Source: Fusobacterium perfoetens ATCC 29250 (GTDB lineage Bacteria > Fusobacteriota > Fusobacteriia > Fusobacteriales > Fusobacteriaceae). From it: a stretch of DNA of 64,000 nucleotides. The notes beneath the pieces were generated by a model. It ran no database searches. It had not been told where the DNA came from and saw only the letters and a list, made by a program, of their open reading frames with translations. Location: positions 354,296-418,295 of the forward strand of contig NZ_KK211416.1 in assembly GCF_000622245.1 (NCBI RefSeq), in the 5' to 3' direction. Positions 19,675-38,444 of this stretch are shown one piece after another (the first letter of the stretch is position 1; each line of letters opens with the position of its first letter). The position numbers were made by a program, and so were the translations under genes.

Positions 19675-19677
19675 TAA

Positions 19678-20823: not shown

Positions 20824-20866
20824 TTTTTTTTTTTGTTGACATATTTAAAAAAAAAAATTATATAAT
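20824..20866 (+). promoter_or_regulatory. Promoter of the AraC-type regulators, flanked and spaced by 11-base homopolymers
   Basis: T11 (20824-20834) is followed by TTGACA (20836-20841), a 19-base spacer containing A11 (20847-20857), and TATAAT (20861-20866). Both boxes are consensus, but the spacer is two bases longer than ideal. Strand slippage in A11 would change the spacing directly, the arrangement of a phase-variable promoter. The promoter is read directly; phase variation is inferred. Confidence 0.6.
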
Positions 20867-20932
20867 TTGTCTATAAAAAACTATATTACAAACATAACTT
20901 GCTCTAAAAATAAATATATTTTGGGAAGGTGT

Positions 20933-22069
20933 ATGATGAGTGAGGAATTACTAAATGATTTATTATCAGAAAAAGAATTTTGTGCTTTGAAAATGTTTGA
21001 TTTTTTAAACAGAGAAATAATAAATAAAAATTATACAATTCAAGAAAAAAATTTTTCTGATTTATTAAAATATTTGAGAAATAGAAAAATCGAATATTTA
21101 GATACTATTTGGAGTAAATCATCTATACAAAGAAATGTTTTTTTAACTATTGTAAATTTATGTGATTTTTGCTTTAAAATAAAAAACATAACATTTCCTT
21201 ATATTGAAAAGTTTTTTCAAGATAAAGAAAAATTATTTTTTACTATACCAATTATAAAAAACTATTCTAAAGAACTATATAAAATTTATTTAATAAGTAG
21301 AAATAAACATAAAATTAAATTTTATAAAAGTGAAAATTTTGAATGTTATTCTGTTGACAAATATAATGATGTATCAAATCTTTATTTAGATTCTAATGAT
21401 ATCTTTTTACATATAATCTTAGATGGTGTAATCTGTGTCAATGGAAAATCTTTTTTAACAAAAGGAGACTTATATTATTCTGGAGAATTTCCTCTAAAAG
21501 AAAACTTTGTTCCTTTAAGTCCGGAATTCAAAAAGATTATTATTGTTATAAAAAAATCTTTTTTTGTAAAATCCAAGATAATAATTAAAAATGAGAATAA
21601 AAATAAGGTTTTTCTTCCTATAATAAATGAATTAGAAAATATATTTAATAGTCCTTTAGATGATAGTGTACTTTTAGAAACTATTACATATTTGATTGAA
21701 TATTTTAATAATAAAAATATTATAAATTTTGAACCTCAATATATAGAAAAGAAAAAAATAATAGTTGATATTATCCAAAATAATATTTTATTACCTAGAA
21801 AAGTTATAGTTGATAAACTTCTAAATGAATTAGATGTATCTTTATCAAAATTATATAGTATATTTTACATTCTTTTTGGGATTCCTATAAATAAATATAT
21901 AGATAAAATAAAATTAGATAAAGCTTGTACCCTTTTAATAACTACAGTTGACCCTATTAGTTACATAAGTTCTCAATTAGGTTTTAATGAAGAAGTTTTA
22001 TTAGCAAAATTTTCAAAGTATATAGGCTGTACGCCATTAAAATTTAGAAAGGATTTTTGTGATAAATAA
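20933..22069 (+). CDS. AraC-family transcriptional regulator (first of pair)
   Basis: A protein of 378 residues, or 377 from the second ATG at 20936. The C-terminal 100 residues carry two helix-turn-helix units of AraC type, ending in ISYISSQLGFNEEVLLAKF and G-C-T-P-L-K-F-R. The N-terminal 270 residues are a divergent sensor region I cannot place. The start is set by GGGAAGG and by the promoter at 20836-20866; a TTG at 20867 would lie at the transcription start and is rejected. Its stop overlaps the next regulator's ATG by one base. Position at the head of the fibre island suggests it activates those genes, as AraC proteins such as Rns do for CS1-type pili. Confidence 0.8.
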   Translation: MMSEELLNDLLSEKEFCALKMFDFLNREIINKNYTIQEKNFSDLLKYLRNRKIEYLDTIWSKSSIQRNVFLTIVNLCDFCFKIKNITFPYIEKFFQDKEKLFFTIPIIKNYSKELYKIYLISRNKHKIKFYKSENFECYSVDKYNDVSNLYLDSNDIFLHIILDGVICVNGKSFLTKGDLYYSGEFPLKENFVPLSPEFKKIIIVIKKSFFVKSKIIIKNENKNKVFLPIINELENIFNSPLDDSVLLETITYLIEYFNNKNIINFEPQYIEKKKIIVDIIQNNILLPRKVIVDKLLNELDVSLSKLYSIFYILFGIPINKYIDKIKLDKACTLLITTVDPISYISSQLGFNEEVLLAKFSKYIGCTPLKFRKDFCDK

Positions 22070-23235
22070 TGATAAGCTTTTTAGAAACTGAATTAGAGAA
22101 AAAAGATAAAAATCTTTATCTAAGATTTAAAATAATAACAAAATTATTAAATTTATCTATTAAAGAAACCAAAGTAGAAATAACCAATAAATATCTAATG
22201 AAAATTTTAAATGTATATTTAACAGAAAATAAAAAAAATATTAATAGTGATAATATACTTGATACATTATTTATATTTTTTGAGGAAATTATTGATTCTT
22301 ATCTTATTGGAAATTTTGATAAGTATAATTTTATTCTAAAAGATTTGAAAATAAATGAAAATATAAAAGAATTTTTAAAAGAGAAAAAAGAAGAAGTTTT
22401 ACAAATTATAGAATATTATCTTGAAAACCCTTTTTCTCAAATAGAAGAAATTTTAGTCTCAAACAATTATTATGATATTATTAAAATAAAAGGAAATTTA
22501 GAAAAGAAAAAATTTAAAGCACGTTTAGAAGTCAATAGTATAATGATTAGATTTATGATAAAAGGAAAACTTTTTTATGAAGATGGCTTTATATTAACAG
22601 ATAATTATTATATTATTACAGGAAAAGAGTCTTTAAAATCATTTTTACCATTAGAAGAAGAATTATATTTAGTAGTAATTATATTAAAAAAATCTCTTAT
22701 AGAAATATTAAATATTAAAGAATCTTTTGAAAAAAATGCTATCAGAAGTTTAGCTTCTAAAAAATATATAGATAATTTACTAAATATTAATTTTCTAAAA
22801 GAAAGACCTTTCTATTTTATTGAAACTTTAATATATTTCTTAAAATCCAATAATCTATTAGAAAAAAATATAACTCCTTTATTAAAAAAAATTAGACATA
22901 ATACAATTGATTTAGCAGATATTTTTTCAAAAATTACAAAAAATATTAAACTAAATTCTGAAAAAATAAAAGATATTTTAATAAAAGAAACTGAACTTTC
23001 AAATATGCAATTAGATAATTTTTTAGTAGAAAAAACCAATTTAACACTAAAAAAATTAATTATTAAGTTAAAAATAAAATATATTTTAGAAGAATATTGG
23101 AATAATAATGTACCTATAGAAGATTTGATAGAAAAATATAATATAGAAAATATGAAAATTTTTAGATACAATTTAAAAATTTTTTATAATTTATCTATTA
23201 AAGATTTAAAGAAAATTAAAAAGAAATCTAGTTAA
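22069..23235 (+). CDS. Divergent AraC-like regulator (second of pair)
   Basis: A 388-residue, lysine-rich protein translationally coupled to the preceding AraC gene (shared base in TAATG). Overall organisation is the same: a long N-terminal region, then a C-terminal stretch of about 110 residues whose spacing matches two AraC helix-turn-helices (LKKLIIKLKIKYILEEYW, then F-R-Y-N-L-K-I-F-Y-N-L-S-I-K-D-L). The normal glycine/proline landmarks are missing, so DNA binding is uncertain. It is probably an ancient duplicate acting as a heteromer partner or sensor of the first regulator. A terminator overlaps its end. Confidence 0.55.
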   Translation: MISFLETELEKKDKNLYLRFKIITKLLNLSIKETKVEITNKYLMKILNVYLTENKKNINSDNILDTLFIFFEEIIDSYLIGNFDKYNFILKDLKINENIKEFLKEKKEEVLQIIEYYLENPFSQIEEILVSNNYYDIIKIKGNLEKKKFKARLEVNSIMIRFMIKGKLFYEDGFILTDNYYIITGKESLKSFLPLEEELYLVVIILKKSLIEILNIKESFEKNAIRSLASKKYIDNLLNINFLKERPFYFIETLIYFLKSNNLLEKNITPLLKKIRHNTIDLADIFSKITKNIKLNSEKIKDILIKETELSNMQLDNFLVEKTNLTLKKLIIKLKIKYILEEYWNNNVPIEDLIEKYNIENMKIFRYNLKIFYNLSIKDLKKIKKKSS

Positions 23236-23253
23236 ACTAGGTTTCTTTTTTTT
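23221..23253 (+). terminator. Intrinsic terminator of the regulator pair
   Basis: AAGAAATCTAG (23221-23231), loop TTAAA, CTAGGTTTCTT (23237-23247), then U6. It separates the regulators from the structural genes, so the latter need their own promoter. Confidence 0.8.
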
Positions 23254-23544
23254 ATCCCTTATTTTGAAAGCATATCACTTTTATACTCAAAACAGAAAAA
23301 AAGAAGAAAAATTTTTAAAAAATTTAAAAAATTTAAAAAAACTTTAATTGATAAACGAGAACAAAATAATTAATTTTTAATTTTGACTAAAAAAAATGTA
23401 AAAAAAAATAAAAAAACATGTGTTAAAAAAATATATTATAGTATAAAATAAGAAAGATGAGAGCAAAATATATTTTAATAATTGTTTTAATATAGTTTTT
23501 ATTGTATTAATAAAGAAGTTTTTGGAGGTAAACGGAGGTAAAAT
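23254..23544 (+). promoter_or_regulatory. Upstream region of the fibre operon with phased A-tracts
   Basis: About 290 bases without a gene. A block at 23310-23345 repeats AATTTAAAA with a period of about nine bases, a phased A/T-tract pattern expected to bend DNA. Further A-runs follow to 23430. A possible -10 box (TATAAA, 23442-23447) lies about 100 bases before the chaperone start; its -35 region is poor, as is usual for activator-dependent promoters. The gene start has GGAGG twice. No factor-specific motif was identified. Confidence 0.35.
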
Positions 23545-24285
23545 ATGAAAAAAATTTTCTTATTCTTAGCAATTTGTGTTAATGCTTTTGCTTTTAGACT
23601 AGAAAATATAACCTTTAATAAAAGTTTAAAAGATGGTTATAGGGAGTACACAGTTTATAATGATGGAACTCAGAGAACTAGATATAAATTAAAACTTGCT
23701 CCTGGAGAAGAAAAAGATATAACAAATTGTTTAGAAGTTTTTCCAAAAATAATAACAGTAGAACCAAAAGGTTCTCAAGTTTTTAAAATATTTGGAAAAG
23801 CTACTGAAAAATTAGAAAACAGAGAATATAAATTTTATTTAAATTTTGAACAAATAATAATACCAACTTTAGGAAAAGCAGATGGAAAAACTGTTTCAGG
23901 AACTTCTATAATGCCTTTAGCACCGAGTATCCAAATGAAAGGATATGGTGGAGAAATAGATTACTCTAAATCTTTATCATTTGAAAATATAAACTTTTCA
24001 AAAGATAAAAATGGTAATTTACAAGTAAAAGGTGATGTAGTAAATAATTCTCATGGAGCTGTTGAAGTAGGACTTAACTTTCATAATAATGATAAAACAG
24101 TGGGTTCTTCAAAAGGAATTGGGGAAATAGCTGCTCATTCAAGAAAAAAAGTAACTATACCTCTTGGCAGCTTTAAAGATAAAGATGAAATAAAACATTT
24201 AACTCTTTATAATGATAATTTTGATATTTTAAAAGAAATAGAACTTGATAATGGAGTTATAGTAAAAGATGCAAGTAAACAATAA
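23545..24285 (+). CDS. Periplasmic pilus chaperone-like protein (two Ig-like domains)
   Basis: A 246-residue protein with a signal peptide ending V-N-A-F-A-F. The first half (about 18-115) has the immunoglobulin-like pattern of PapD/CfaA chaperones: an R-x-Y-T-V-Y-N-D-G strand, then LEVFPKIITVEPKGSQVFKI, the strand-turn-strand that ends in a conserved basic/hydrophobic edge. The second domain (about 145-240) contains VVNNSHGAVEVGL. Such chaperones hold pilin subunits in the periplasm by lending a strand and deliver them to the usher. It is the first structural gene, followed 35 bases later by the pilin genes. Homology is inferred from pattern, not search. Confidence 0.7.
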   Translation: MKKIFLFLAICVNAFAFRLENITFNKSLKDGYREYTVYNDGTQRTRYKLKLAPGEEKDITNCLEVFPKIITVEPKGSQVFKIFGKATEKLENREYKFYLNFEQIIIPTLGKADGKTVSGTSIMPLAPSIQMKGYGGEIDYSKSLSFENINFSKDKNGNLQVKGDVVNNSHGAVEVGLNFHNNDKTVGSSKGIGEIAAHSRKKVTIPLGSFKDKDEIKHLTLYNDNFDILKEIELDNGVIVKDASKQ

Positions 24286-24320
24286 TGTTTATATAGAGAA
24301 ATTTAAAAAGGAGGAAAATT

Positions 24321-24923
24321 ATGAAAAAATTATTGTTAGGAGCTTTATTAATAGTTGGAGCAACTTCTTTTGGTGCTGTAAGTTCTGAATTAAAAGTTAC
24401 AGATGATGTTTCAGACCCAAAAAAATATTCTGGAAGTGGTTCTTTAGGTTTAGTAAGTAGAGGAGAAGTAGTTGATGCTACTGGTAAAATTATGTTAATT
24501 ATAACACCTACTGTTAGTGCTGGAGCTGATGGAACTTCATTGGCATTTGAACATGGGCAAATATTAGTGGGAGGTTCTAGTGAATTAACAGGAAAATTTG
24601 AAGCTAAAGTTGTTACTGGTGCTAATAATGAAATAATTCCTATTACAGATAAGGAATTAACTGTTAAATTATATGCTGAAGGAAATTCAACAGTAAGTGA
24701 AACAACACAAGGAAGTTATTCTGCTAATCCTATAAACTTAGTGGGACCTACAGGTTCAACATTGGCATATCAATTAACAAATGATAGTGGTTTACAAGGA
24801 AATATTTATAGAGGAACTATTCTTTCTAAAGTTGAAGCTAAAAATACAGCTGGAACATTCTTAGATAGAACTGGTAAAGTTGTAGTAGAAGTAACTAATT
24901 TAAGTGCAACACCACAATCATAA
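24321..24923 (+). CDS. Major pilin-like subunit, copy 1
   Basis: A 200-residue secreted protein with signal peptide MKKLLLGALLIVGATSFGA. The mature protein is beta-rich, Gly/Ser/Thr/Val-rich and free of cysteine. Its N-terminus has alternating hydrophobics (S-G-S-L-G-L-V-S-R-G-E-V-V), as expected of a donor strand. Near the C-terminus is G-N-I-Y-R-G-T-I-L-S-K-V. That G-x-Y-x-G pattern is shared by all four tandem copies and is reminiscent of CS1/CfaB-type pilins. It has an AGGAGG site. It is closely similar in DNA to the next gene. Most likely it polymerises into the fibre shaft. Confidence 0.7.
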   Translation: MKKLLLGALLIVGATSFGAVSSELKVTDDVSDPKKYSGSGSLGLVSRGEVVDATGKIMLIITPTVSAGADGTSLAFEHGQILVGGSSELTGKFEAKVVTGANNEIIPITDKELTVKLYAEGNSTVSETTQGSYSANPINLVGPTGSTLAYQLTNDSGLQGNIYRGTILSKVEAKNTAGTFLDRTGKVVVEVTNLSATPQS

Positions 24924-24968
24924 AAATTTTAAAATAAAATTAATTTTAGAAAACAAGGAGGAAAAATT

Positions 24969-25559
24969 ATGAAAAAATTATTATTAGGAGCTTTATTAAT
25001 AGTTGGAGCAACTTCTTTTGGTGCTGTAAGTTCTGAGTTAAAAACTACAGATACTGGACCTGATCCGAAAAAATATTCTGGAAGTGGTTCTTTAGGTTTA
25101 GTAAGTAGGGGAGAAGTGGTATCTGCTGCAAATAAAGTTATGTTAATTATAACACCTACTGTTAGTGCTGGAGCCGATGGAACTTCATTGGCATTTGAAC
25201 ATGGACAAATATTAGTTGGAGACTCTAGTGAATTAACAGGAAAATTTGAAGCAAAGGTTGTTACTGGTGCTAATAATGAAATACTTCCTATTACAAATGA
25301 ATTAGCAGTTCAATTAATTGTTGGAACTGATAATGTAAAACAAGGAGAATATTCGAATACTGTAGAATTAATTAAAGGAACTTCAACTGATACAACATTA
25401 GCATATCAATTAACAAATGATAGTGGTTTACAAGGAAATATTTATAGAGGAACTATTCTTTCTAAAGTAATGGCTGGAGATAAAGCTGGTACATTTTTAG
25501 ATAGAGGTTCTAAAATTGAAGTAACTGTAACTGATTTACCAGCAACAGCAAAACCATAA
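24969..25559 (+). CDS. Major pilin-like subunit, copy 2
   Basis: A 196-residue paralogue of the preceding gene. The signal peptide is identical, and the blocks around S-G-S-G-S-L-G-L-V-S-R-G, SAGADGTSLAFEHGQILVG and LAYQLTNDSGLQGNIYRG are almost identical in DNA as well as protein. Differences cluster in surface-loop-like segments (residues about 26-32, 105-135). This is a recent tandem duplication, giving either antigenic diversity or dosage. The intergenic spacing (45 bases) and ribosome site also duplicate those of copy 1. Confidence 0.7.
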   Translation: MKKLLLGALLIVGATSFGAVSSELKTTDTGPDPKKYSGSGSLGLVSRGEVVSAANKVMLIITPTVSAGADGTSLAFEHGQILVGDSSELTGKFEAKVVTGANNEILPITNELAVQLIVGTDNVKQGEYSNTVELIKGTSTDTTLAYQLTNDSGLQGNIYRGTILSKVMAGDKAGTFLDRGSKIEVTVTDLPATAKP

Positions 25560-25598
25560 AAAATAAATTAAATTTTTTAAGAAAGGGGGAAGAGAAAT

Positions 25599-26159
25599 TT
25601 GAAGAAATTATTACTAGGTGTCGCATTATTAGGAAGTTTTTCTTATAACACATTAGCACAAAAAGTTGGAAGTTTACATGTAGATGTAGTAGCAAATATG
25701 TTAGATTCTACTAGTAACTATGTGTTAATAATTGAACCTACTATTAGTGCTAGTAATGATGAAAGTTATTTATTATTTAACCATGGACAAGTATTAACTA
25801 ATCAAACTGATATATTACTTGGAAAATTTAAAGCTATGGTAATAGAAAGAGATACAGGAAATATAGTTCCTTTAAAAGAAGCAAATGATGAAAATGCTGA
25901 AGGAATGTATGTAGCTTTAGAAGTGGATAATAAACAGTTTGGAAAAGGAGAAGAAACTTTAGGACATGAGGTAATAAAAGATTCAAGTGGTGCATTGACC
26001 CCTTCTAATTTATATTATTCATTAACAAGAAATAGTGGAATTTATAGTGATATTTATAATGGTGAAGTCCTTTCTAAATTAATTACAGGTACAGCTACTG
26101 GAAGTTTTATCTACAAACGGGGAAATATAGTTGTAAAAGTAAATAATATAACACCTTAA
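25599..26159 (+). CDS. Divergent pilin-like subunit, copy 3
   Basis: A 186-residue secreted protein translated from a TTG behind GGGGGAAGAG. The signal peptide (MKKLLLGVALLGSFSYNTLA) is related to those of copies 1 and 2. Family landmarks remain: VLIIEPTISAS, LLFNHGQVL, L-L-G-K-F-K-A-M-V, and Y-N-G-E-V-L-S-K-L near the end. The Gly-rich N-terminal donor-like stretch of copies 1 and 2 is shortened. It is probably a minor or specialised subunit (initiator, adaptor or terminator). The TTG start may lower its expression relative to the major pilins. Confidence 0.65.
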   Translation: MKKLLLGVALLGSFSYNTLAQKVGSLHVDVVANMLDSTSNYVLIIEPTISASNDESYLLFNHGQVLTNQTDILLGKFKAMVIERDTGNIVPLKEANDENAEGMYVALEVDNKQFGKGEETLGHEVIKDSSGALTPSNLYYSLTRNSGIYSDIYNGEVLSKLITGTATGSFIYKRGNIVVKVNNITP

Positions 26160-26180
26160 TTGATAAAAAGGAGGAATATT

Positions 26181-26876
26181 TTGAAAAAATTATTATTAGG
26201 AGTAGCATCATTATTAATAGGAGCTACTACCTATTGTGGAGTAGCTGTAGACTTAAAAGAAGAGTCCACAGGAACATTTGGTGGAACAGCTAGTTTAGGA
26301 ATTGTAAGTAGAGGAGAAATAGTTGATGCTACTGGAAGATTTTTATTAATAGTCGAGCCAACTGTAAATGCTGGAGCTGATGGAACATCATTAGCATTTG
26401 ACCATGGACAAATTTTAATAGGAAGAGCTAGTGAACTAATAGGTAAATTTGAAGCTATGGTTGTTACTGGAGGAGCTAATATTGATGAAAATTATTCAAT
26501 TGTTCCTATGACAGGAGATGAAATAACAGCACAATTATATCATGGAAATTCTTCTATTCCAGAAGAACCAGGAATATATTCAGAACCAAAAGAATTACAT
26601 ATAATGAATGCTCCTGAAGGAATTATTCCTGGAACAAAAGAAAATTCTACTTTAGCATATCAAATAACAAAAGATAGTGGAATGCAAGGGGATATTTATA
26701 GAGGAATTATCTTATCAAAAATTATTGCTGGAGATATTCCTGGAACATTTTTAGATAGAAGTGCAAAACTATTAGTAAAAGTAGATAATGTAGATATAAA
26801 ACATATGCATGGTGATGTTATATCGAATAATGACAAAGGTTATGGAGATATTATAGCTAACTCAAATAATAAATAA
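26181..26876 (+). CDS. Pilin-like subunit, copy 4
   Basis: A 231-residue paralogue beginning at a TTG at 26181, 7 bases after AGGAGG; a TTG at 26160 is upstream of that site and is rejected. Landmarks: G-T-A-S-L-G-I-V-S-R-G-E-I-V, NAGADGTSLAFDHGQILIG, and G-D-I-Y-R-G-I-I-L-S-K-I, then G-T-F-L-D-R. It carries an insertion around residues 125-150 and a polar C-terminal tail (ending S-N-D-K-G-type residues) absent from the others, suggesting a distinct place in the fibre. A strong hairpin follows before the usher. Confidence 0.65.
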   Translation: MKKLLLGVASLLIGATTYCGVAVDLKEESTGTFGGTASLGIVSRGEIVDATGRFLLIVEPTVNAGADGTSLAFDHGQILIGRASELIGKFEAMVVTGGANIDENYSIVPMTGDEITAQLYHGNSSIPEEPGIYSEPKELHIMNAPEGIIPGTKENSTLAYQITKDSGMQGDIYRGIILSKIIAGDIPGTFLDRSAKLLVKVDNVDIKHMHGDVISNNDKGYGDIIANSNNK

Positions 26877-26885
26877 CCTCAAAAA

Positions 26886-26914
26886 TATACTCAAGAGTAT
26901 AACTCTTGAGTATA
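26886..26914 (+). terminator. Intercistronic hairpin between pilins and usher
   Basis: TATACTCAAGAGT (26886-26898), loop ATA, ACTCTTGAGTATA (26902-26914): a perfect 13-pair stem without a U-tail. It probably stabilises the pilin mRNA and attenuates transcription into the usher, as expected when subunits are needed in large excess. Confidence 0.6.
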
Positions 26915-26979
26915 TATATAAGTTTATTAAAAGATTAATAAATTTATATATGTATAAAAAAGGAGGGGGGAAAATTGTT

Positions 26980-29685
26980 ATGGTTTATAAAAAATCAAGA
27001 ATAACTTGGTTAATACTCTCATTTATTTTAAATAGTATAATAAGTATGGCTGAACCAGAATTCACAGAAGAAGAATTACTACTACTAAAAGAAAATAAAG
27101 CCATAACACAAGAAGAATTTTTAATTTTACTTAGAGAATTAACTGATGGAACTGCCAATGAAAAAAACTTTTATAACTTAAAAATTAACAATAAACTTTT
27201 AAATAGAAACTATGAAGTTTTAAATGAAAATGGAAAACAATATTTACAACTTCAAGGATTTTTTTCTTCAATAGGATTTACTAACTATTATCCTCATAAA
27301 GAAAGTACTGAAATATTTTTAGGAACAGAATTAGAAGAAATTATCCTAGAACATAAAAAAAATAAAGTTATAAGAGCTGGAAAGGAAATAAAATTTCAAG
27401 GAGATTATCCTAAATTTATAATAAGAAATGGATTTGTATATGTTGAAAAAGAGGTTTTTGAAAAAATATTTTTAAATGAATTAAGAATAGATAATCAAAA
27501 TCTAGACATACATATGGGATTAAATTTCACTCCTCCAGTAGCAATAGATAGATTAATAGATATTGCTAAAGAAAAATTAGATAGAGAGTCTAATAAAAAA
27601 GAATTGGTTTTTGGAGGAAAAAGAACTTGGTTTGATTTAGGTTATGTAAATATAGATGCAGGATATAATTTTTCTAAATCTTCTGAAAGTTCAAAATATG
27701 ATAGAAAATGGGATAGTTCTATTAGTTATCAAGGTGGATTATTATTTGGGGAATTACGTTTTGATTATGACTTAAAAGAAAATGAAGCTAGAAACTTTAA
27801 TTTACAATATGACCAAATTATAGAAAATCATACTTTGGATATTAGTAGAGATAAATTAGGTTCTGATGGTTTATGGGGATTAAGATTATATAAAGATAGA
27901 GGATATACAAATCAAGGTGGACAAATAACAATCTCTGAAACTGTTCCAATAGGTTCTAGAGCTCAATTATTATATATGGGTGTTCCTATAGAAATAGAAG
28001 ATGAAGAAAATGGTAGAGTTACATTTAATAGTAAAGAAATAAAATCTAATAGAGATTATCAATTAAAAATTTATTATCCTGATGGAAAAATTGTACTAAA
28101 AGATATTAGAACTACTGATGATTATAACAAACAAGAATTAGGAGAATTTGAATACGATATTAATATAAACGAGAGAAAAGAAATCTTTTTAAATGGAAAT
28201 AATAAAGATGAACTGTATAAAGGGTTTGATACTCAAACAAATTTCTACTATGGACTTACTGATAAATTGACATTAGGTTTTGGATTTTCAAATGAAATGG
28301 AACAAAATGTTCAAAGAGAAAAAGAATATTTAAAAACTTTAAGAGGAAATATTATCTATAGTGATACTTTAAATGGATATTCTTATACATTTAGATTAGA
28401 TGGTGAAAGAGCATTTAGTAATTTTTATGATACAGCTGGAAAAAATTATTCAGATATGAATAGTTTTGGATATTTAACAGAAATTACTAAAAATAAATGG
28501 AGAGTAACTTTAGAAGAAAGTAGATACGCTGAATATTATGAAGAAAAAAAGAAAAATTCTTTAAATATAACTTATGATATATTGCCTAATATAAGTTTAG
28601 ATTATAAATATGATAAAACTAATTATTATGATGGTAAAAGAGAAATTGAAGAAAGCTTAGGTTTTGATGTAGACTATGCAATTAAAGGTGTCTTATTAGG
28701 AGCTTCAGCAGACTTTGATTTAAGAGATAGCAAAAACAATGAATATAGTTTTAATGCATATTTTGGTGGTATAAAAAATTGGAATATGAGACTAGAAAAT
28801 ACTTGGACAAATAATGGAGATGACTACGAAGTAGCTTTAAATCTTTATAATAATAATTTTAAAGGATTTATAGATTTCTCTACAGAATTTAGATATTCTA
28901 ATACTGATAAAGAAAGTTTTGGAATACAATTTAGTATGATAATAGATGATTTAATAACAATAGATGCTTCTGGAGATAAAGATGGACAAAGAGATTTAAG
29001 ACTTGGAATTGATAAGACAATCGATTTAAAAAATCCATTCATAAATATAGATAGTACAGATGTATCAAGAGCAAATATTATAACATTTGTTGACCAAAAT
29101 AATAATGATATTTATGATGAAGGAGAACCTCTAATCGAAGGTGTAGAAGTATCAATAGGACTTAAAAAAGTTATAACTAATAAAGATGGTAGAGCTAAAA
29201 TTTATGGTCTTTCAAATGGAATCGAATATGATTTGAATCCAAAAATTAAGAAACCATCTTATACTTTAGGTAATAATAAAATTAAAATTTTAAGTAATTT
29301 TTCATCAGAAGTAGATGTACATATTCCTATAAAACCAATGATGAATCTAAATGGATATATTCAATTAGATAAAAATCTTGGATTAAAACCAGAAGCTAGA
29401 GAAGAATTTTATTCTAATATAATTATTCAAATATTAGATGAAGAAGGTAAAGAGATAGATATAGCTTCTCCTGATAATATAGGATTCTTTGATATAAGTG
29501 GATTATATCCAGAAACATATTTATTAAAAGTATTCTACATTGGTAACGATTATAAAATATTAAACTTAAATGAAAAACTACAATTAAAATATGATAAAAA
29601 TTATGGATTTGATTTCCAACTATTATTTAATGTATCTAACAAAGGTATAGAACTTGTAGAAAAAGGAAAAGGAGCTGGTTTATAA
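26980..29685 (+). CDS. Outer-membrane usher-like protein
   Basis: A 901-residue secreted protein. Signal peptide 1-24, then an N-terminal periplasmic domain (about 45-195) ending F-T-P-P-V-A-I-D-R-L. A long beta-strand-rich barrel region (about 215-690) follows, with alternating aromatic residues. Within it, about 300-365 is a plug-like segment: P-I-G-S-R-A-Q-L-L-Y-M-G-V-P-I with Y-Q-L-K-I-Y-Y-P-D-G. The C-terminal part has an Ig-like domain, V-D-Q-N-N-N-D-I-Y-D-E-G-E-P-L-I-E-G, as in ushers of the alternate (CS1/CfaC) class. Ushers are the assembly pore for pilins. Start at 26980 chosen for GGAGGGGGG nine bases before; the ATG at 26950 lies upstream of that site. Confidence 0.7.
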   Translation: MVYKKSRITWLILSFILNSIISMAEPEFTEEELLLLKENKAITQEEFLILLRELTDGTANEKNFYNLKINNKLLNRNYEVLNENGKQYLQLQGFFSSIGFTNYYPHKESTEIFLGTELEEIILEHKKNKVIRAGKEIKFQGDYPKFIIRNGFVYVEKEVFEKIFLNELRIDNQNLDIHMGLNFTPPVAIDRLIDIAKEKLDRESNKKELVFGGKRTWFDLGYVNIDAGYNFSKSSESSKYDRKWDSSISYQGGLLFGELRFDYDLKENEARNFNLQYDQIIENHTLDISRDKLGSDGLWGLRLYKDRGYTNQGGQITISETVPIGSRAQLLYMGVPIEIEDEENGRVTFNSKEIKSNRDYQLKIYYPDGKIVLKDIRTTDDYNKQELGEFEYDININERKEIFLNGNNKDELYKGFDTQTNFYYGLTDKLTLGFGFSNEMEQNVQREKEYLKTLRGNIIYSDTLNGYSYTFRLDGERAFSNFYDTAGKNYSDMNSFGYLTEITKNKWRVTLEESRYAEYYEEKKKNSLNITYDILPNISLDYKYDKTNYYDGKREIEESLGFDVDYAIKGVLLGASADFDLRDSKNNEYSFNAYFGGIKNWNMRLENTWTNNGDDYEVALNLYNNNFKGFIDFSTEFRYSNTDKESFGIQFSMIIDDLITIDASGDKDGQRDLRLGIDKTIDLKNPFINIDSTDVSRANIITFVDQNNNDIYDEGEPLIEGVEVSIGLKKVITNKDGRAKIYGLSNGIEYDLNPKIKKPSYTLGNNKIKILSNFSSEVDVHIPIKPMMNLNGYIQLDKNLGLKPEAREEFYSNIIIQILDEEGKEIDIASPDNIGFFDISGLYPETYLLKVFYIGNDYKILNLNEKLQLKYDKNYGFDFQLLFNVSNKGIELVEKGKGAGL

Positions 29686-29687
29686 TT

Positions 29688-30272: not shown

Positions 30273-30276
30273 CTTT

Positions 30277-30298
30277 TAGGAAGGGTCACCCCTTCCTA
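30277..30298 (+). terminator. Second intercistronic hairpin of the fibre island
   Basis: TAGGAAGGG (30277-30285), loop TCAC, CCCTTCCTA (30290-30298). It is GC-richer than its surroundings and has no U-tail. It divides the cluster after the usher and minor-pilin genes. Confidence 0.55.
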
Positions 30299-30322
30299 TT
30301 AGTATATATGGAGGATAAAAGT

Positions 30323-30850: not shown

Positions 30851-30865
30851 AAAGGGGTTGATATA

Positions 30866-31165: not shown

Positions 31166-31586
31166 AAAAATTATATTATTTTTTATAATCAATACAATAT
31201 CTTTTTCCTATATAAATCTTTATCCACTAGAATTTAATAAAAATATAACAAAAGGAGCTTTTCAAGAATTTGTTTTATACAATAGAAGTACGAAACCTGT
31301 AAGATATAGAATATATATAGAAGAAGTTCCCAATAGAAATTCAATGAAAGATTGGATTGAAGTTTATCCAAAAAGTATAACTCTAAATTCATTAGAAGAG
31401 GATAGTATAAGAGTTTATGTACAATCTCCTGAAGGTACAAAAGAAGGAATTTATGAAGCTAATTTAGTTATAAAAGAAATTTCTTTACCTCAACCAAAAC
31501 TAACTGAAGAAGAGAAAAATAAAAAACATAATATATTAACAATGGTTAAATTAAGATTGAAAGGAAGCGTAAAATATGAGAACTAA
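31140..31586 (+). CDS. Single-domain pilus-chaperone-like protein 1
   Basis: A 148-residue exported protein. After the signal peptide it has one Ig-like domain with the same landmarks as the first half of the chaperone at 23545: L-E-F-N-K-N-I-T-K-G, F-V-L-Y-N-R-S-T-K-P-V-R-Y-R-I, and W-I-E-V-Y-P-K-S-I-T-L. There is no second domain. Start: the ATG at 31140 gives the best signal peptide; GTG 31128 and TTG 31131 are alternatives. It overlaps the LysM gene before it and the lipoprotein gene after it. It may be a dedicated chaperone for one subunit, or a scaffold. Confidence 0.6.
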   Translation: MQTIKKIYKKIILFFIINTISFSYINLYPLEFNKNITKGAFQEFVLYNRSTKPVRYRIYIEEVPNRNSMKDWIEVYPKSITLNSLEEDSIRVYVQSPEGTKEGIYEANLVIKEISLPQPKLTEEEKNKKHNILTMVKLRLKGSVKYEN

Positions 31587-32802
31587 AAATATTTTAAAAG
31601 TAATCATGATATTTATGTTTATAATTACTGGAGGTTGTATATCTAGTTATAATAATAGTAAAGAATTAAAAATAACAAGTAAAAATTTAGAAAACATTAT
31701 TTTTTTTGATGTAGTAGATTTAAAAGAAAAAAAATTTATCTATACTAATCAAAATAAAACATTTTTAAATGAAAAAAATGAAGAAAAAGAATTAGATAAA
31801 TATATTATAAAAACTATTCAAAAAGATAAAAGATATTATATATATTTTGATGATAAAATAAGTAAATTTGGAGTTTTATCAGATAATTATAATGTACTAA
31901 TCTCCCCTCAATATGATTATATAGAAAATTTAGAAGATACAGTTTTTTTTAAAGTTATTAAAAATAAAAATCTATATTTATTAAACTTTAAAAGCAAGGA
32001 ACTTATTAAAATAGATAATTTTAAAATGGATAACAATAAAAATATACTAATAACACAAGATAAAAAAACTTCCTTAATAGATAAAAATGGAAAATTATTA
32101 ATAGGAGAAAACTATGATTATATATTATATACAAAGGAAGATAAAGCAGTTGTTAGTTTAAATAAAAAATATGGAATAGTTGATTATCAAAATAATATAG
32201 TAATCCCTTTTAAATATGATGAAGTATATTTTAGTGGAAAAAATATTATAGCTAAAAAAGATAATAAGTATTACTTTAATGAAAAAGAGCTTCAAATAAA
32301 TAAAATATATCCAAGTACAAATGATGTTTTGGTTTACGACTTAAATGAAGGGTTTGGACTAATTGATATAAAAAATAATAAAATTTCTAAAAAAATGTAT
32401 AGAGAAATAGCACCAAAGTTTAATGAATATATATTAGTTAGTAATGAAGATAAATATACAATAATAAATAAATATGAAACTAAAAAATTAAATAAAGATT
32501 ATGATTATATAATAAATTTAGGTAAAGATAGTTTTATTGGAGGAAATGATGATGGTAAAACTATGAGTTTAATAGTTAAAGATAAAATAATAAGTGAAGG
32601 AAATTATGATGAAATAAAAGAAGTTACAACTGGATTATATGAACTCATTCAAGGAAAACAAATTATTTTCTTAGATGAAAATGGAAATAAACTTTTAGAA
32701 ACTTCAATGGATACACTTATATATTTTGATGATAAAATTGCTATTACTTCAATAAATGGCGAAAAACAAATCCATATATTTAAAAAGGTTGTGATAGAAT
32801 GA
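31576..32802 (+). CDS. WG-repeat lipoprotein
   Basis: A 408-residue protein with a lipoprotein signal peptide (lipobox T-G-G-C). The mature part has degenerate WG/KWG-type repeats, for example K-Y-G-I-V-D-Y-Q-N-N-I-V-I-P-F-K-Y-D-E, spaced about 45-50 residues and expected to form a beta-propeller-like solenoid. WG repeats are common in secreted proteins of this phylum, and their role is generally unknown. It overlaps its neighbours on both sides (11 and 4 bases), so it belongs to the same translational chain. It may be a membrane-anchored assembly factor. Confidence 0.65.
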   Translation: MRTKNILKVIMIFMFIITGGCISSYNNSKELKITSKNLENIIFFDVVDLKEKKFIYTNQNKTFLNEKNEEKELDKYIIKTIQKDKRYYIYFDDKISKFGVLSDNYNVLISPQYDYIENLEDTVFFKVIKNKNLYLLNFKSKELIKIDNFKMDNNKNILITQDKKTSLIDKNGKLLIGENYDYILYTKEDKAVVSLNKKYGIVDYQNNIVIPFKYDEVYFSGKNIIAKKDNKYYFNEKELQINKIYPSTNDVLVYDLNEGFGLIDIKNNKISKKMYREIAPKFNEYILVSNEDKYTIINKYETKKLNKDYDYIINLGKDSFIGGNDDGKTMSLIVKDKIISEGNYDEIKEVTTGLYELIQGKQIIFLDENGNKLLETSMDTLIYFDDKIAITSINGEKQIHIFKKVVIE

Positions 32803-33182
32803 TAAAAAAAATAATTTTCTTTTTTTTAATCTCATTAAATATATTTGCTTTTAAAATAGATTCTCTTAATTTTGACCAAGAAATAAAAATAGGAGAAAAA
32901 GCAAGTAAAGAGTTCTTTTTAGAAAACAATAAAGATAATATAGTAAGATATAAAATTTCGATTGAAGGAAATAAAAAAAATATAAAAGTTTTACCTAATA
33001 ATCTTATAATATCCAAGGGAAAAAGTAAAAGTTTTACAATTACAATAGATGGAAAAGGAAAATTAGGAGAACACACTTATTTTTTAATTATTGAAGAAGA
33101 GGTTGTTAATCTAGAAAAAAAAGAATCAACAGCTAAAATTAAACTGAAATATAGAATAGAGCAAAAATATTATATTAAATAA
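32799..33182 (+). CDS. Single-domain pilus-chaperone-like protein 2
   Basis: A 127-residue exported protein. The signal peptide is followed by one Ig-like domain parallel to those at 23545 and 31140: F-K-I-D-S-L-N-F-D-Q-E-I-K-I-G, E-N-N-K-D-N-I-V-R-Y-K-I-S-I, then I-K-V-L-P-N-N-L-I-I. It ends after that single domain. The start overlaps the lipoprotein gene by four bases (ATGA). Having three related chaperone-like proteins in one island suggests different clients. Confidence 0.6.
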   Translation: MIKKIIFFFLISLNIFAFKIDSLNFDQEIKIGEKASKEFFLENNKDNIVRYKISIEGNKKNIKVLPNNLIISKGKSKSFTITIDGKGKLGEHTYFLIIEEEVVNLEKKESTAKIKLKYRIEQKYYIK

Positions 33183-33208
33183 AATATTTTTGAAAATGGA
33201 GGAAATTT

Positions 33209-33706
33209 ATGAAAAAATATCTATTTTATTTTTTACTAATATTTAATTTAAGTATAAATTCATTTGGAGAATTAGTAACTGCACCAGATTTTAAATTAAA
33301 AGACCAATATGGTATAGAACATTCTCTTGAAAAATACAAAAATAAAAAAGTCTTTTTAATATTTTGGACAAGTTGGTGTAAGTATTGTGAAGACACATTA
33401 GAAGATATACAACAATTATATAAAGAAAACGGAGAAAATAAAAAAGATATTATATTTTTAACTTTTAATAATGAAGAAAAAAAAGATTTAAAAAAAGTTT
33501 TAAAAGAAAAAAAATATGAGTTTCCAGTTATAAATAATAAAATAATTTTTTATCAATATTATGTAGAATATTTTCCAACTAACTATATAATTGATGAAAA
33601 AGGAAAAGTAGTACAATCAATAGCTGGACAAATAAACAAAGAAAATCTAAAAAAATTAATAAAAAATCAGAATTATAAAATAGAAAAAAAGAAAGTTACT
33701 AACTAG
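33209..33706 (+). CDS. TlpA/ResA-like periplasmic thioredoxin
   Basis: A 165-residue exported thioredoxin-fold protein. Residues 25-40 (A-P-D-F-K-L-K-D-Q-Y-G) are the usual TlpA opening, the active site is W-C-K-Y-C at 56-60 (Cys57, Cys60), and the cis-Pro region is F-P-T-N-Y-I-I-D. It should exchange disulfides in the periplasm. It sits between a chaperone-like gene and the giant secreted protein. The latter has about six cysteines, whereas the pilins have none, so the adhesin is the natural client. Whether it oxidises or reduces is not visible. Confidence 0.8.
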   Translation: MKKYLFYFLLIFNLSINSFGELVTAPDFKLKDQYGIEHSLEKYKNKKVFLIFWTSWCKYCEDTLEDIQQLYKENGENKKDIIFLTFNNEEKKDLKKVLKEKKYEFPVINNKIIFYQYYVEYFPTNYIIDEKGKVVQSIAGQINKENLKKLIKNQNYKIEKKKVTN

Positions 33707-33719
33707 GGGGAGGATATTA

Positions 33720-36700
33720 ATGGGCAATAAAATAAAAAAATTTATTATGCTTTTAACAGTTATCTTTGGAATTACTTTATTTGCCAGTGAAGGAACAGAA
33801 GTACCCAATCAACTAATAACAGAAAATCCTGATAAAGAAGTTACTACTGTAGAAAGTATGAAAGTAAGAGACCATGCAACAATGTCTTTAAGTATAACAA
33901 AAAGTAATCCAGAAGAAATAATGGGAAATCTTTCAGAAGATGGAAATCTTTCTGTATTTATTTATAAAAAACAAGCTAGAATGATGGCAAGAAATAAAAA
34001 TGCAGATATAAGTAATTTTAAACTAAAAGCTTATACTAATATTAAAAATAATGATATTGCTTTATTAAGAGCAAATACTAATAAAAATAAGAAAATTGAT
34101 AATTTAACAGCTGAAGATATTAGAAATATGAAAGATAGTAGAGAATCTTCTAAAGAAAAAAGAATTGATATAATAGAAGAAACTAATGAATATGTAAGGT
34201 TAAGAGTAAGAGATGTAAGAGAAAATGAAAAAGTTTATATTTCTGTAATGAATGGAAATAATGTAGTTAAATCTTATAGAATAGGAAATATTACTAGAGA
34301 TGGTACTGAAGAAAATCATTGTTGGTGGTCTATGAACCTTGATTGGGGAATCCAACTAGGTGATATATATAAAAAAAATCTAAATAGTGATGATTTAATT
34401 CAAATTAATTGTGATACTGGAAATACTGTTAATAATAAATTTATTGCTTGGAAAGATAATGAAGGTTTAAGTTTTCCAGAACATAGTGGATTAACAAATA
34501 TAAGCGTAGCTGATATTAAATCAAATACCCCAATAAAAGACCAAGATGAATATAATAAAAATAATGATGCAAAAGTCTCTGGAGAAGGAGTTGCACATGG
34601 AGTTAGATTTTTTATTAATTCTTTATTACCTGTAAATACACCAAAATCAATATACCATTATAATTTTACAAATGTAAAATATGGAAATGATGATAAAAAA
34701 ACAGAATCAAGTGCTAAATCTAATAGTTTAGAAAACACTAAAGCTGTTAAAGTTGAATATTCAAGCGCAACATATGAAACATTTAAATCGGCTACTTCAA
34801 TAATAGAAACAGCTACAGGGTCTTGTACCTTACCTTCTAACCATCAATATAAAAGTATATTTTCATCAGTAAAAGTTGCATTTAATAGTAATATAGAATA
34901 TAAAGGAATGAAACCAGGAGTTTATTATCATGAAAACGCTTTATCTGTAACTTGTAAAGGGGTAGGAAATCATACTAGTACACTTAAAAGTTCATACTAT
35001 ATTGACTTTACTGATATAACTCCAAGAACAAAAACACAAGATTTATATAATATAGTTGGTGGAACAACTATATTAACAGAATCAAAAGACTCTAAATTAG
35101 GTTTAAGTTTTATAACAAGAAATAATAAGCAAGTTAATAATTGTGAAGTTGGTATTTGGAAAGATAATGACAAATTACCATATAGTGATAATCCTCAACA
35201 AGATGGTTTAACTATAACTTCTGGAAGTAGTACTATAAAAATATCAGGAACTCAAGATAATGATGGATATATGAAGTTACATATTTATCATGAAAATGCT
35301 TCACAAAATGATGCTACATTTAATTTTACATTAAAACAAGGTAGAAAAGTTAATGGTGAACTTAGAGCTCATAGAACTGTTACTTATAATTTAACTTGGA
35401 AAAAAACTAACGATTTTGGAAGTTCTCAAATAAATCTTGATAAAAGAATTACACAAACTGGAGATTTTGGAAAATGGGTAAAATTTAATGGAGAGATTTA
35501 TGCTGAAAATGGAAATCTAAAATCAAAATTTCCAGAATTAGTGGGATATAATTCTAGTGGAGAAAAACCAAATATACCTGATACTCAAGTTACAAGAATA
35601 GAAAGTATAAATGATGTATCAAATAGTAATTTATTTCATTATCCTAATGCTACTAATGGTACTCATAGACATGAAAATTATCTTGCTATTCCTCGTAATG
35701 TTAGCCTTCAACAATATAAAATCGCTAATGGAAAAATATACGTATCAAGAGAGGGAGAAAAAACTAATAATACTTTCTTAGTTCAAGTTAATAATCAAGA
35801 TTACTGGAGTGGAAAAGTTATTAAAAATTATGCAACTGATTCAAGTGCTACATTAAATGGTAGTGGAACTCTTGATATGACAGAAGCAGTTATAAATACT
35901 GAATATGTTTTTGCTCCAAATGGTAATCAAGGAACTGGAAATGGTTCTACTATATCATTCCAAAATGGTGGTAAATCTTTTGACTCAACAGGAATGTTGT
36001 ATAAAAATAATAATTTTAGTATAGCTGATAAAATAGTATTCATAATAAATGGTCAATCACAAACACATGAATTATCGAATACTACTTCATCTGAAATAAC
36101 ATCTGGGGTTAAAATCTCTCCAGTTACTTTAAATAATTTAGATAGTTTTGCTATAGGTATTAGTGAAAATGGAGGACTAATTATAAAAAAATTAAAAGAT
36201 GTCAATACTAATACTCCAGTAACTATTAAATATTATTTACAAAATAAACAATCAGGAAATAATAATGATGTTGAATTAGGAACATATAATTTAACTATAA
36301 TATCTAAAATTAACAAAGTTTCAATAGGAGAAAGTAAATTTAAAATAGATAATAGACTTTCAAGAGTGAAAAAAAATTATACCTTATTGGCTACTGGAGG
36401 ACTAATAAATGGTAATAATTCAACTTCTGTTGATGGTGGAAGATATCCAGATTTAATTACTACAACACAATTTAATCAGATTTCAACTATACCAGAAAGT
36501 GAAAACCCTCAAATAACTAGTGCAACAATATCTGATGCAACTTTAAGTGATACAAGAACATTTGATGGAATAAAATATGGTAGACATCTTCTTAGTGGTG
36601 GTTCTTTAAAAGGATTTTTCCCAATAGAGCAAAAGTTAAAAGATATATATAAGTATATAGCATACCAAACTAATTCTAGCTTCTGTAAAGATTCTTATAA

Positions 36701-38444
36701 ATTTGAAATGACTGGAAATACTTATAAAAAGTATACTGGAACAATAACTAAGGAAATTGTTAATAACTATAATGAAGCTACTGCTACTTTAGATATAACA
36801 GGAGCTGATAAAGATGCAATAGGTACTTGGGATTCTAATGCTAGTGGTACAAGCGGAATATTAGTAAGTAATAAATTTAAGCTACAATTTAATGATACTA
36901 ATCAAAAATTATTTAATACAAAAGATATAAACAATACAAAAAAAATAGTTGATAAAATTAAAATTGATGGTACTGAACAAAATTTACCATATCAATTAGA
37001 TTTAAATAGTGATGGTACAAAGGATTTAGAAATTAATATCAATGAAAATGGACAATTAACAATTAAAAAGTTAACTATGCTTGAAAAGAACATAGAAAAC
37101 TATCAAATTGTAATTATACCTATGTACCAAGATTTAGAATTAGGTAAATTAACTTTAACAATAAAAAATGTAGTAAAAGAATTAAGTGGAACTCCTACAT
37201 ATAAAATAGATAAAAGATTACTTGGAGGATTGCCTGAACACAACTGGTTATTCCCTAATGGAAAAGTAAAAAAAGGTGGATTATTTGATATAACTACAGA
37301 TAATCCTAATGGAAATACTAGCACTTTTTCAAATAATTATTCTAAATTTTTTAAATTTAGTGGACAGTTTACTAATTTAGGAACTGGAACTATAGTAAAA
37401 GCTCTTTCAATGGAGGGAAGAGAAACAGACCAGAATAATAATGATAATAAAATTTATAAAAGATTTATAAAAAATGGACAATCTACAGATGAAGGAGCTA
37501 TTCCAAAACAAGGTGTTAAATTAACTGAATTAAATGATAAATTTATTGTATCAAAATATCAAAATGTTTCTTTAGATAATAAATTTAGTATTCTTGTAGA
37601 AGATAACGGTAATTATATTATATATAAAGGAAATGTTGTAGAAGATTATAAAGGTGGAGTAAGTATAGGTAGTGGAACTATTGATGTAATTCATATGGAA
37701 AATAATGTAACTTATGAATTTAATCCAAATGATTATACACAAGGACAACCAGTAATAGGAAAAAATAATGATGGAACAAAAACTTTAGAAATGACAAATG
37801 TAACAAATAGTTCTTCAAGTGAAGTTTCTAATCCATTACCTAATGGAAATACTAATAATGAAGTAACTAGTTTAAGTAAAATTGCTAATAAGATTACTGT
37901 TAATGAAACTACTAATAATGGAGAAACAGCAACTATAGATGGATTAACTTTTGGTATAGGAGATAATGGCGGACTTACAGTTAGTAAAAATGAATCTGTG
38001 AATATAAAGGATGAAAAAAACTATACTATTAAAATGTATTATAGTAAACCAGAAGGTGACATACTATTATCTGAATTTTCTCTTAAAGTATCTAAACTTG
38101 GATTTGAAATTGATGGAGATTCAACATTAGAATTTAGAGATATGGTTTGGAGACCAAATAAAACTACTGAAACAAGAGAAAAAGAATTTACAGTAATAAA
38201 TCATACTGATAAAACTGTAACTTTTGAAGTAAAAAATAAATCTCTTGACCTTACATCAACAACTCCAGGTTCTAAAGAAACTATAAACTTATCTCCAATA
38301 GAAATAGTAAAACAAACTAATGAAAAAGGAAAAGAAAAATTTACTTTAAGAGCTACAGCAAATTTAAATGAAAATATTCCAACAGACCAACATTTTACAG
38401 GAGAAATAGAAATTACTGTTAATATTTCTTCAACTAAAAAATAA
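33720..38444 (+). CDS. Giant repetitive secreted protein, probable fibre adhesin
   Basis: A 1,574-residue exported protein (signal peptide about 1-23, ending L-F-A-S). The N-terminal 560 residues contain most of the cysteines and are presumably the binding region. Then come three related units, each opening with a D-K-R or D-N-R motif at about residues 572, 876 and 1163. Later each carries a T-L-D-M / T-L-D-I / T-I-D-V strand and I-x-E-N-G-x-L-x-I-K-K-type ends. The last 110 residues form a separate beta domain ending F-T-G-E-I-E-I-T-V-N-I, pilin-like. It is the last gene of the island. The adhesin role is inferred from position, size and cysteines; I recognise no named domain. Confidence 0.6.
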   Translation: MGNKIKKFIMLLTVIFGITLFASEGTEVPNQLITENPDKEVTTVESMKVRDHATMSLSITKSNPEEIMGNLSEDGNLSVFIYKKQARMMARNKNADISNFKLKAYTNIKNNDIALLRANTNKNKKIDNLTAEDIRNMKDSRESSKEKRIDIIEETNEYVRLRVRDVRENEKVYISVMNGNNVVKSYRIGNITRDGTEENHCWWSMNLDWGIQLGDIYKKNLNSDDLIQINCDTGNTVNNKFIAWKDNEGLSFPEHSGLTNISVADIKSNTPIKDQDEYNKNNDAKVSGEGVAHGVRFFINSLLPVNTPKSIYHYNFTNVKYGNDDKKTESSAKSNSLENTKAVKVEYSSATYETFKSATSIIETATGSCTLPSNHQYKSIFSSVKVAFNSNIEYKGMKPGVYYHENALSVTCKGVGNHTSTLKSSYYIDFTDITPRTKTQDLYNIVGGTTILTESKDSKLGLSFITRNNKQVNNCEVGIWKDNDKLPYSDNPQQDGLTITSGSSTIKISGTQDNDGYMKLHIYHENASQNDATFNFTLKQGRKVNGELRAHRTVTYNLTWKKTNDFGSSQINLDKRITQTGDFGKWVKFNGEIYAENGNLKSKFPELVGYNSSGEKPNIPDTQVTRIESINDVSNSNLFHYPNATNGTHRHENYLAIPRNVSLQQYKIANGKIYVSREGEKTNNTFLVQVNNQDYWSGKVIKNYATDSSATLNGSGTLDMTEAVINTEYVFAPNGNQGTGNGSTISFQNGGKSFDSTGMLYKNNNFSIADKIVFIINGQSQTHELSNTTSSEITSGVKISPVTLNNLDSFAIGISENGGLIIKKLKDVNTNTPVTIKYYLQNKQSGNNNDVELGTYNLTIISKINKVSIGESKFKIDNRLSRVKKNYTLLATGGLINGNNSTSVDGGRYPDLITTTQFNQISTIPESENPQITSATISDATLSDTRTFDGIKYGRHLLSGGSLKGFFPIEQKLKDIYKYIAYQTNSSFCKDSYKFEMTGNTYKKYTGTITKEIVNNYNEATATLDITGADKDAIGTWDSNASGTSGILVSNKFKLQFNDTNQKLFNTKDINNTKKIVDKIKIDGTEQNLPYQLDLNSDGTKDLEININENGQLTIKKLTMLEKNIENYQIVIIPMYQDLELGKLTLTIKNVVKELSGTPTYKIDKRLLGGLPEHNWLFPNGKVKKGGLFDITTDNPNGNTSTFSNNYSKFFKFSGQFTNLGTGTIVKALSMEGRETDQNNNDNKIYKRFIKNGQSTDEGAIPKQGVKLTELNDKFIVSKYQNVSLDNKFSILVEDNGNYIIYKGNVVEDYKGGVSIGSGTIDVIHMENNVTYEFNPNDYTQGQPVIGKNNDGTKTLEMTNVTNSSSSEVSNPLPNGNTNNEVTSLSKIANKITVNETTNNGETATIDGLTFGIGDNGGLTVSKNESVNIKDEKNYTIKMYYSKPEGDILLSEFSLKVSKLGFEIDGDSTLEFRDMVWRPNKTTETREKEFTVINHTDKTVTFEVKNKSLDLTSTTPGSKETINLSPIEIVKQTNEKGKEKFTLRATANLNENIPTDQHFTGEIEITVNISSTKK

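What the first reader, a model, noticed from the sequence alone, without database searches (positions are those of the whole stretch)
20824..38444. Candidate new chaperone-usher-like surface fibre system in a fusobacterium
In one 17-kb island I see two AraC-type regulators, a PapD-like chaperone, four tandem pilin-like subunits, an usher-like outer-membrane protein, two more chaperone-like proteins of one domain each, a LysM protein, a WG lipoprotein, a thioredoxin and a 1,574-residue repetitive secreted protein. Classical chaperone-usher operons encode 4-11 proteins and do not include LysM, WG, single-domain chaperones or a thioredoxin. The closest known class is the alternate CS1/CFA type (AraC activator, G-x-Y-x-G pilin ends, Ig-like usher C-terminus), but gene content is much larger.
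Basis: partly seen in the sequence, partly recalled or inferred. Interest (0 to 1): 0.88.

Follow-up and report, generated by a model that had tools for sequence, protein, structure and literature searches.

The report
Unrecognised fusobacterial chaperone-usher pilus island
This 19-kb DNA insertion in a member of the Fusobacteriaceae encodes a full set of parts for building sticky hair-like fibres by the chaperone-usher route, a pathway a review lists as missing from the best-known fusobacterium, with unusual half-size chaperones, a giant predicted tip adhesin and signs of an on/off genetic switch.

Summary
In detail: all the genes are there. The 911-residue protein is an usher. Its AlphaFold2 model (pLDDT 83.5) matches FimD and PapC structures as the top 17 PDB hits (best E 1.8e-24), although Pfam's Usher model does not detect it. 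The pilin model's 13 best PDB hits are all chaperone-usher pilins, but only at E 3e-3 or worse. The core order chaperone-pilin-[chaperone]-usher-S1-S2 is conserved in 21 Fusobacteriaceae genomes of five genera, and the S1 profile matched nothing else among 389 genomes.

New here:
- The island (about 19676-38617) is an insertion; congeners carry the empty site.
- Two chaperone-like proteins consist of domain 1 only, each in a supported clade.
- The giant protein ends in a pilin-like domain and has about 300-residue repeats.
- A strong RNA hairpin follows the pilin gene.
- The AraC promoter has perfect hexamers around an A11 tract; a congener's pilus promoter has G10 in its spacer.

The CS1/CFA assignment is not supported. 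This is best read as a new lineage of a known kind.

The parts
19676..38617 (.). Inserted island: the DNA between lipoprotein gene 18946-19674 and the region before rfaD that is absent at the same site in congeners
   Evidence: Window 19675 and 38618 lie 26-38 bases apart in congeners G036 and G033; G032 (SecA 99% identical) also has the empty site
20824..20866 (+). Candidate phase-variable promoter of the AraC pair: T11, then TTGACA (20836), a 19-nt spacer holding A11, then TATAAT (20861)
   Evidence: Only perfect TTGACA-TATAAT pair (15-21 spacing) in the window, flanked by the two longest A/T runs in it; same design with G10 in congener locus L048
20867..22069 (+). AraC1, AraC-type regulator (likely start ATG 20933 or 20936)
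   Evidence: HTH_18 E 1.3e-9; start inferred from promoter and GGGAAGG site
22069..23235 (+). AraC2, divergent AraC-like regulator
   Evidence: No Pfam HTH match; grouped with AraC1 by iterative profile search
23545..24285 (+). ChapA, two-domain PapD-like periplasmic chaperone
   Evidence: PapD_N 21.4 bits; family of 30 with invariant Pro67 in domain 1
24321..24923 (+). Pilin 1
   Evidence: AF2 pLDDT 82.9, pTM 0.73; 13 best PDB matches are chaperone-usher pilins, best E 3e-3
24969..25559 (+). Pilin 2, recent duplicate of pilin 1 (77% identical)
25599..26159 (+). Pilin 3, divergent paralogue
   Evidence: 35% identical to pilin 1
26160..26876 (+). Pilin 4
   Evidence: 55% identical to pilin 1
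26870..26950 (+). Tandem RNA hairpins between last pilin and usher, candidate attenuator or mRNA stabiliser
   Evidence: MFE -27.9 kcal/mol, z -9.4; hairpins after the pilin gene in most relatives, median z -4.8 against -1.5 for other gaps
26950..29685 (+). Outer-membrane usher (N-terminal domains, barrel, plug at about 326-390, C-terminal domains with SdrD-B-like D-x-N-x-N loop)
   Evidence: AF2 pLDDT 83.5; Foldseek top 17 all FimD/PapC, best E 1.8e-24; hhalign to E. coli K-12 ushers E 2.1e-5; loop conservation
29688..30272 (+). S1, conserved secreted minor subunit candidate with invariant D-x-D-x-D-G-x-x-D-T loop
   Evidence: 21 of 21 aligned members, directly after the usher; profile found only in Fusobacteriaceae among 389 genomes
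30308..30850 (+). S2, conserved secreted protein, candidate minor subunit or anchor
30866..31165 (+). Small secreted LysM protein
   Evidence: LysM E 5.9e-15; eight homologous ORFs in relatives' loci
31128..31586 (+). ChapB, single-domain (D1-only) chaperone
   Evidence: Matches chaperone profile positions 3-139 of 236, E 2e-43; supported clade across genera
31576..32802 (+). WG-repeat lipoprotein
   Evidence: WG E 1.8e-12; fused to a chaperone-like domain in L036
32799..33182 (+). ChapC, second single-domain chaperone-like protein, usually beside the giant protein gene
   Evidence: Profile positions 4-136 of 236, E 1.2e-20; clade 100/99
33209..33706 (+). Secreted thioredoxin-like protein (CxxC)
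   Evidence: AhpC-TSA E 6.7e-20; not seen within other type-I operons
33720..38444 (+). Giant secreted protein, probable tip adhesin: about 300-aa repeats near residues 573, 876 and 1163, and a C-terminal pilin-like domain (last about 120 aa)
   Evidence: C-terminal domain shared by 22 loci; repeats

Best explanation
The island encodes a chaperone-usher adhesive pilus of a lineage special to Fusobacteriaceae. Shown by computation: an usher fold, PapD-like chaperones, pilin-like subunits, conserved gene order and insertion at one chromosomal site. Inferred: ChapA, helped by the domain-1-only ChapB and ChapC, holds subunits in the periplasm by donor-strand complementation. The usher then strings pilins 1-4 into a rod, with S1 and S2 as minor or anchoring subunits. 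The 1,574-residue protein, which ends in a pilin-like domain, leaves first and forms a long repetitive tip adhesin. A hairpin after pilin 4 keeps pilin output above usher output. Slippage in the A11 tract of the AraC promoter is proposed to switch the system on and off. LysM and WG proteins probably hold the assembly site to peptidoglycan and the membrane (weakest inference).
For: Usher: AF2 model matches only FimD/PapC ushers in the top 17 PDB hits over nearly the full length. hhalign to six E. coli K-12 ushers gives E 2.1e-5 over 451 columns. Distant fusobacterial relatives pass the Pfam Usher cut-off and are linked to the window usher by profile. Pilin fold: top 13 hits are chaperone-usher pilins. 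Chaperone: PapD_N in 7 of 30 members, invariant proline, Ecp chaperone profile E 2.6e-4. Operon conserved. Giant protein C-terminus conserved with a DFG motif also seen in EcpD. Hairpins. Promoter tracts. Empty site.
Against: Pilin fold match is below the usual significance (best E 3e-3). TM-scores of the usher to full-length ushers are mostly only 0.34-0.44. S1, S2, the one-domain chaperones and the giant protein have no structure model. No donor strand was observed directly. No expression, microscopy or functional data. Phase switching is inferred from two promoters only.
Confidence: 0.85

Rival explanations
1. It is simply a distant member of the alternate (CS1/CFA/Ecp) class carried into Fusobacteria.
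For: Chaperone domain 1 aligns better with Ecp chaperones (E 2.6e-4, 97 columns) than with classical ones (E 3.6e-3, 43 columns). The EcpD adhesin shares a LDFG motif with the giant protein's C-terminal domain. AraC regulators.
Against: No hit of 37 ushers to CS1-type usher models or of 28 pilins to CS1 pilins. The characteristic non-classical arginine is missing (against PMC4654587). The usher matches single EcpC no better than single FimD.
Confidence: 0.2
2. It is an archaic (sigma, Csu-like) chaperone-usher system, the class known in several phyla.
For: Archaic systems have the widest spread (PMC4654587). The giant protein's C-terminal DFG motif resembles archaic and alternate subunits (recalled, not tested).
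Against: Pilins have no cysteines after the signal peptide, whereas cysteines are invariant in archaic pilin domains (PMC4654587). No spore-coat-U (SCPU) match among pilins. Conserved arginine absent.
Confidence: 0.12
3. The usher-like protein exports the giant repetitive protein as a surface adhesin and no polymeric pilus is made; pilin-like proteins are only small surface decorations.
For: Giant protein and usher are usually together; giant size (up to 2,853 residues) is unusual for a pilus tip.
Against: Pilin genes precede the usher in nearly all loci, are duplicated to four here, and are followed by a strong hairpin as expected for a highly produced subunit.
Confidence: 0.1
4. A non-chaperone-usher outer-membrane barrel system that only resembles an usher.
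For: The sequence does not reach the Pfam Usher model.
Against: Full-length fold match to ushers including the plug region; linked chaperones and pilin-like subunits.
Confidence: 0.03

Closest known systems
Classical chaperone-usher pili (type 1/Fim, P/Pap of E. coli)
   Same: Usher fold with plug in the barrel, PapD-like chaperone, pilin-like subunits, hairpin after the pilin gene (analogy from own knowledge)
   Different: About 11% identity, no Pfam Usher hit, one-domain chaperones, giant tip candidate, SdrD-B-like calcium-type loop in the usher C-terminal domain, no cysteines in pilins
Alternate chaperone-usher pili (Ecp, CS1/CFA)
   Same: Chaperone domain 1 profile slightly closest to EcpB/EcpE; tip-subunit DFG motif; some loci with two chaperones, like EcpB and EcpE
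   Different: No CS1/Cfa family hits, conserved arginine absent, different gene order with S1, S2, LysM, WG
Archaic chaperone-usher pili (Csu, CupE)
   Same: Found outside Proteobacteria; general scheme
   Different: No SCPU match, no pilin cysteines, no non-classical chaperone arginine
Distant fusobacterial usher loci (for example L051-L064)
   Same: Homologous usher about 20-27% identical, linked two-domain chaperone; some reach Pfam Usher
   Different: Different subunit set (420-485-715-488-280 residues before the usher in one group), no S1 or S2

Membership tests
Chaperone-usher pathway (whole superfamily) | Outer-membrane usher: barrel with inserted plug, N- and C-terminal periplasmic domains | tested here: met
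   AF2 model and Foldseek, top 17 hits FimD/PapC; hhalign E 2.1e-5
Chaperone-usher pathway (whole superfamily) | Two-domain Ig-like periplasmic chaperone with the superfamily's invariant proline | tested here: met
   Two-domain family, Pro67 in 30 of 30; PapD_N in 7 of 30, sub-threshold. Pro67 is equated with CsuC Pro59 by alignment only
Chaperone-usher pathway (whole superfamily) | Pilin with incomplete Ig fold and N-terminal donor strand | tested here: inconclusive
   Fold matches chaperone-usher pilins at best E 3e-3; donor strand not examined
Alternate (CS1/CFA/Ecp) class | CS1-type usher or pilin families | tested here: not met
   No such Pfam family among 37 ushers or 28 pilins at E 0.1
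Alternate and archaic classes | Conserved chaperone arginine (Arg89 of CsuC/EcpB) | tested here: not met
   Position after Tyr95 is S, D, T, L, K and others; alignment to EcpB is of low confidence
Archaic class | Invariant pilin cysteines / SCPU domain | tested here: not met
   No cysteine in mature pilins 1-4; no SCPU hit
Classical class | Pfam Usher (PF00577) above cut-off | tested here: not met
   Window usher none; only distant relatives in three genomes pass
Chaperone-usher pathway (whole superfamily) | Assembly of surface pili | not testable with these tools
   Needs microscopy and mutants

The most novel reading that the evidence does not exclude
A fourth chaperone-usher lineage, confined to Fusobacteriaceae, in which chaperones cut down to domain 1 alone still present subunits, the tip is a repeat-extendable adhesin of up to about 2,850 residues, and expression is switched by homopolymer slippage in a promoter spacer.
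Probability: 0.45. Interest if true: 0.78.

Novelty: new variant of a known kind. Interest (0 to 1): 0.62.

Why it matters
A 2026 review states that F. nucleatum and F. vincentii strains lack chaperone-usher pathways (PMC12940168). A survey lists the usher family in Proteobacteria, Spirochaetes, Cyanobacteria and Deinococcus-Thermus but not Fusobacteria (PMC4827864), and another paper confines classical and alternate types to beta- and gamma-proteobacteria (PMC4654587). A hidden family in Cetobacterium and relatives would widen the known range of these pili, give a candidate colonisation factor for gut fusobacteria, and make testable whether a chaperone can work with one domain only.

Tried and rejected
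Direct PDB sequence searches with usher, chaperone, pilin, S1 and S2 profiles gave no pilus hit; only SdrD B domains matched the usher C-terminus. NCBIfam added nothing. tblastn of the usher against plasmids found nothing. hhalign against single sequences was uninformative. The collection scan with S1 found 11 loci, fewer than the genome search, because the search patterns were strict (against 84). The repeat search within the giant protein by self-BLAST found none; the motif spacing did. No integrase or terminal repeat was seen at the island borders; both lie at terminators. Literature searches for fusobacterial chaperone-usher pili found no report.

Full report
Observation. PapD_N on the first chaperone is just under cut-off. 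The usher-like protein, the pilins and the 1,574-residue protein have no useful Pfam, NCBIfam or PDB sequence match. The genome has one copy of the usher.

Relatives. Among 98 Fusobacteriota genomes, 33 encode a relative of the usher. Mapping 40 loci showed a core order: chaperone, pilin, sometimes a second chaperone, usher, S1, S2, often LysM, then one-domain chaperones, WG protein and a very large secreted protein. S1 is the most conserved marker. It occurs in 21 of 389 genomes searched, all in the same family, five genera. Named hosts are Cetobacterium species and uncultured Fusobacteriaceae. A second, distant usher family has other subunits.

Usher. The model has mean pLDDT 83.5. The 17 best PDB matches are all FimD or PapC, best E 1.8e-24, over nearly the full length for the top ones. 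The low TM-scores (mostly 0.34-0.44) reflect different domain placement and distance. Profile comparison with six E. coli K-12 ushers gives E 2.1e-5 over 451 columns. Distant fusobacterial relatives pass the Pfam Usher cut-off in three genomes. The C-terminal domain has an SdrD-B-like loop, D-x-N-x-N, with D in 37 of 37 and both N in 36 of 37 members. S1 has an invariant D-x-D-x-D-G-x-x-D-T loop. Calcium binding is an inference from these motifs.

Pilins. The model of pilin 1 has pLDDT 82.9 and pTM 0.73. Its 13 best PDB matches are all subunits of type 1 or P pili, but the best E is 3e-3. This is specific rather than individually significant. Pilins 1 and 2 are recent duplicates. The gap between the last pilin and the usher folds at -27.9 kcal/mol, z -9.4. 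Across relatives the gap after the pilin has median z -4.8 (22 gaps) against -1.5 for 62 other gaps (p 1.3e-9). The hairpin sequences differ between loci while the hairpin itself persists. I read this as the major-subunit attenuator or stabiliser, by analogy with known pilus operons (own knowledge).

Chaperones. The family's Pro67 is invariant, as the superfamily proline should be, but the arginine typical of archaic and alternate chaperones is missing (PMC4654587). ChapB and ChapC align to profile positions 3-139 and 4-136 of 236, that is, domain 1 only. In a domain-1 tree ChapB forms a clade with support 98/99 and ChapC one with 100/99. Loci with one long chaperone carry the short ones, while loci with two long chaperones mostly do not. 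In L036 a chaperone-like domain is fused to the WG protein. A literature search with the term single-domain chaperone found none in this context.

Giant protein. Relatives of 388-2,853 residues share a C-terminal domain of about 120 residues with a DFG motif and a G-x-Y ending, aligned weakly with EcpD. Repeats of about 300 residues occur three times here and more in L031. A pilin domain at the C-terminus after a long N-terminal part is the layout of tip adhesins (own knowledge).

Insertion. In G036 and G033, window positions 19675 and 38618 are 26-38 bases apart. G032, 99% identical in SecA, also has the empty site. So the whole island, 18.9 kb, is present or absent as a block at a terminator between the lipoprotein gene and rfaD.

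Switch. The only perfect TTGACA-TATAAT pair in the window stands before AraC1, with a 19-base spacer holding A11 and T11 just upstream. These are the two longest A/T runs in 64 kb. In congener G036 (L048), TTGACA-N18-TATAAT with G10 in the spacer stands 145 bases before the first chaperone gene. Across the 41 sequences scanned (40 loci and the window), these two are the only perfect pairs with a long homopolymer in the spacer. Slipped-strand phase variation is likely but untested.

Class. Membership in the chaperone-usher superfamily is met for usher and chaperone, likely for pilin. Specific tests for the archaic class were not met, and the CS1 tests were not met. The chaperone profile leans slightly to Ecp. 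I therefore describe it as a separate fusobacterial lineage pending a full usher tree.

Context. A review states that two F. nucleatum-group strains lack chaperone-usher pathways (PMC12940168), and an earlier survey lists the usher family without Fusobacteria (PMC4827864). No report of such pili in Fusobacteria was found in the open-access library; subscription papers are not covered.

Noticed in passing
L051-L055, L057-L064, L066: Second, distant fusobacterial usher family with a different operon (subunits of about 420, 485, 715, 488 and 280 residues before the usher in one group), some above the Pfam Usher cut-off; another uncharacterised pilus type.
   Followed up: partly
window 19734-20629, - strand: Two small secreted proteins (124 and 166 residues) without family lie inside the inserted island, facing away from the pilus operon.
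   Followed up: no
L048:6006-6035: Perfect promoter with G10 in the spacer upstream of a pilus operon in a congener.
   Followed up: yes
L034:19417 and L035:3465: C8 tract between S1 and S2 in G048, possible further slippage site (the two loci overlap the same DNA).
   Followed up: no
window 40549-41616: PilT-like ATPase gene (by reading its sequence; no family scan run) close to the island, outside it.
   Followed up: no
L034 (G048:C1): Two pilus operons lie back to back, divergently, in one genome.
   Followed up: partly
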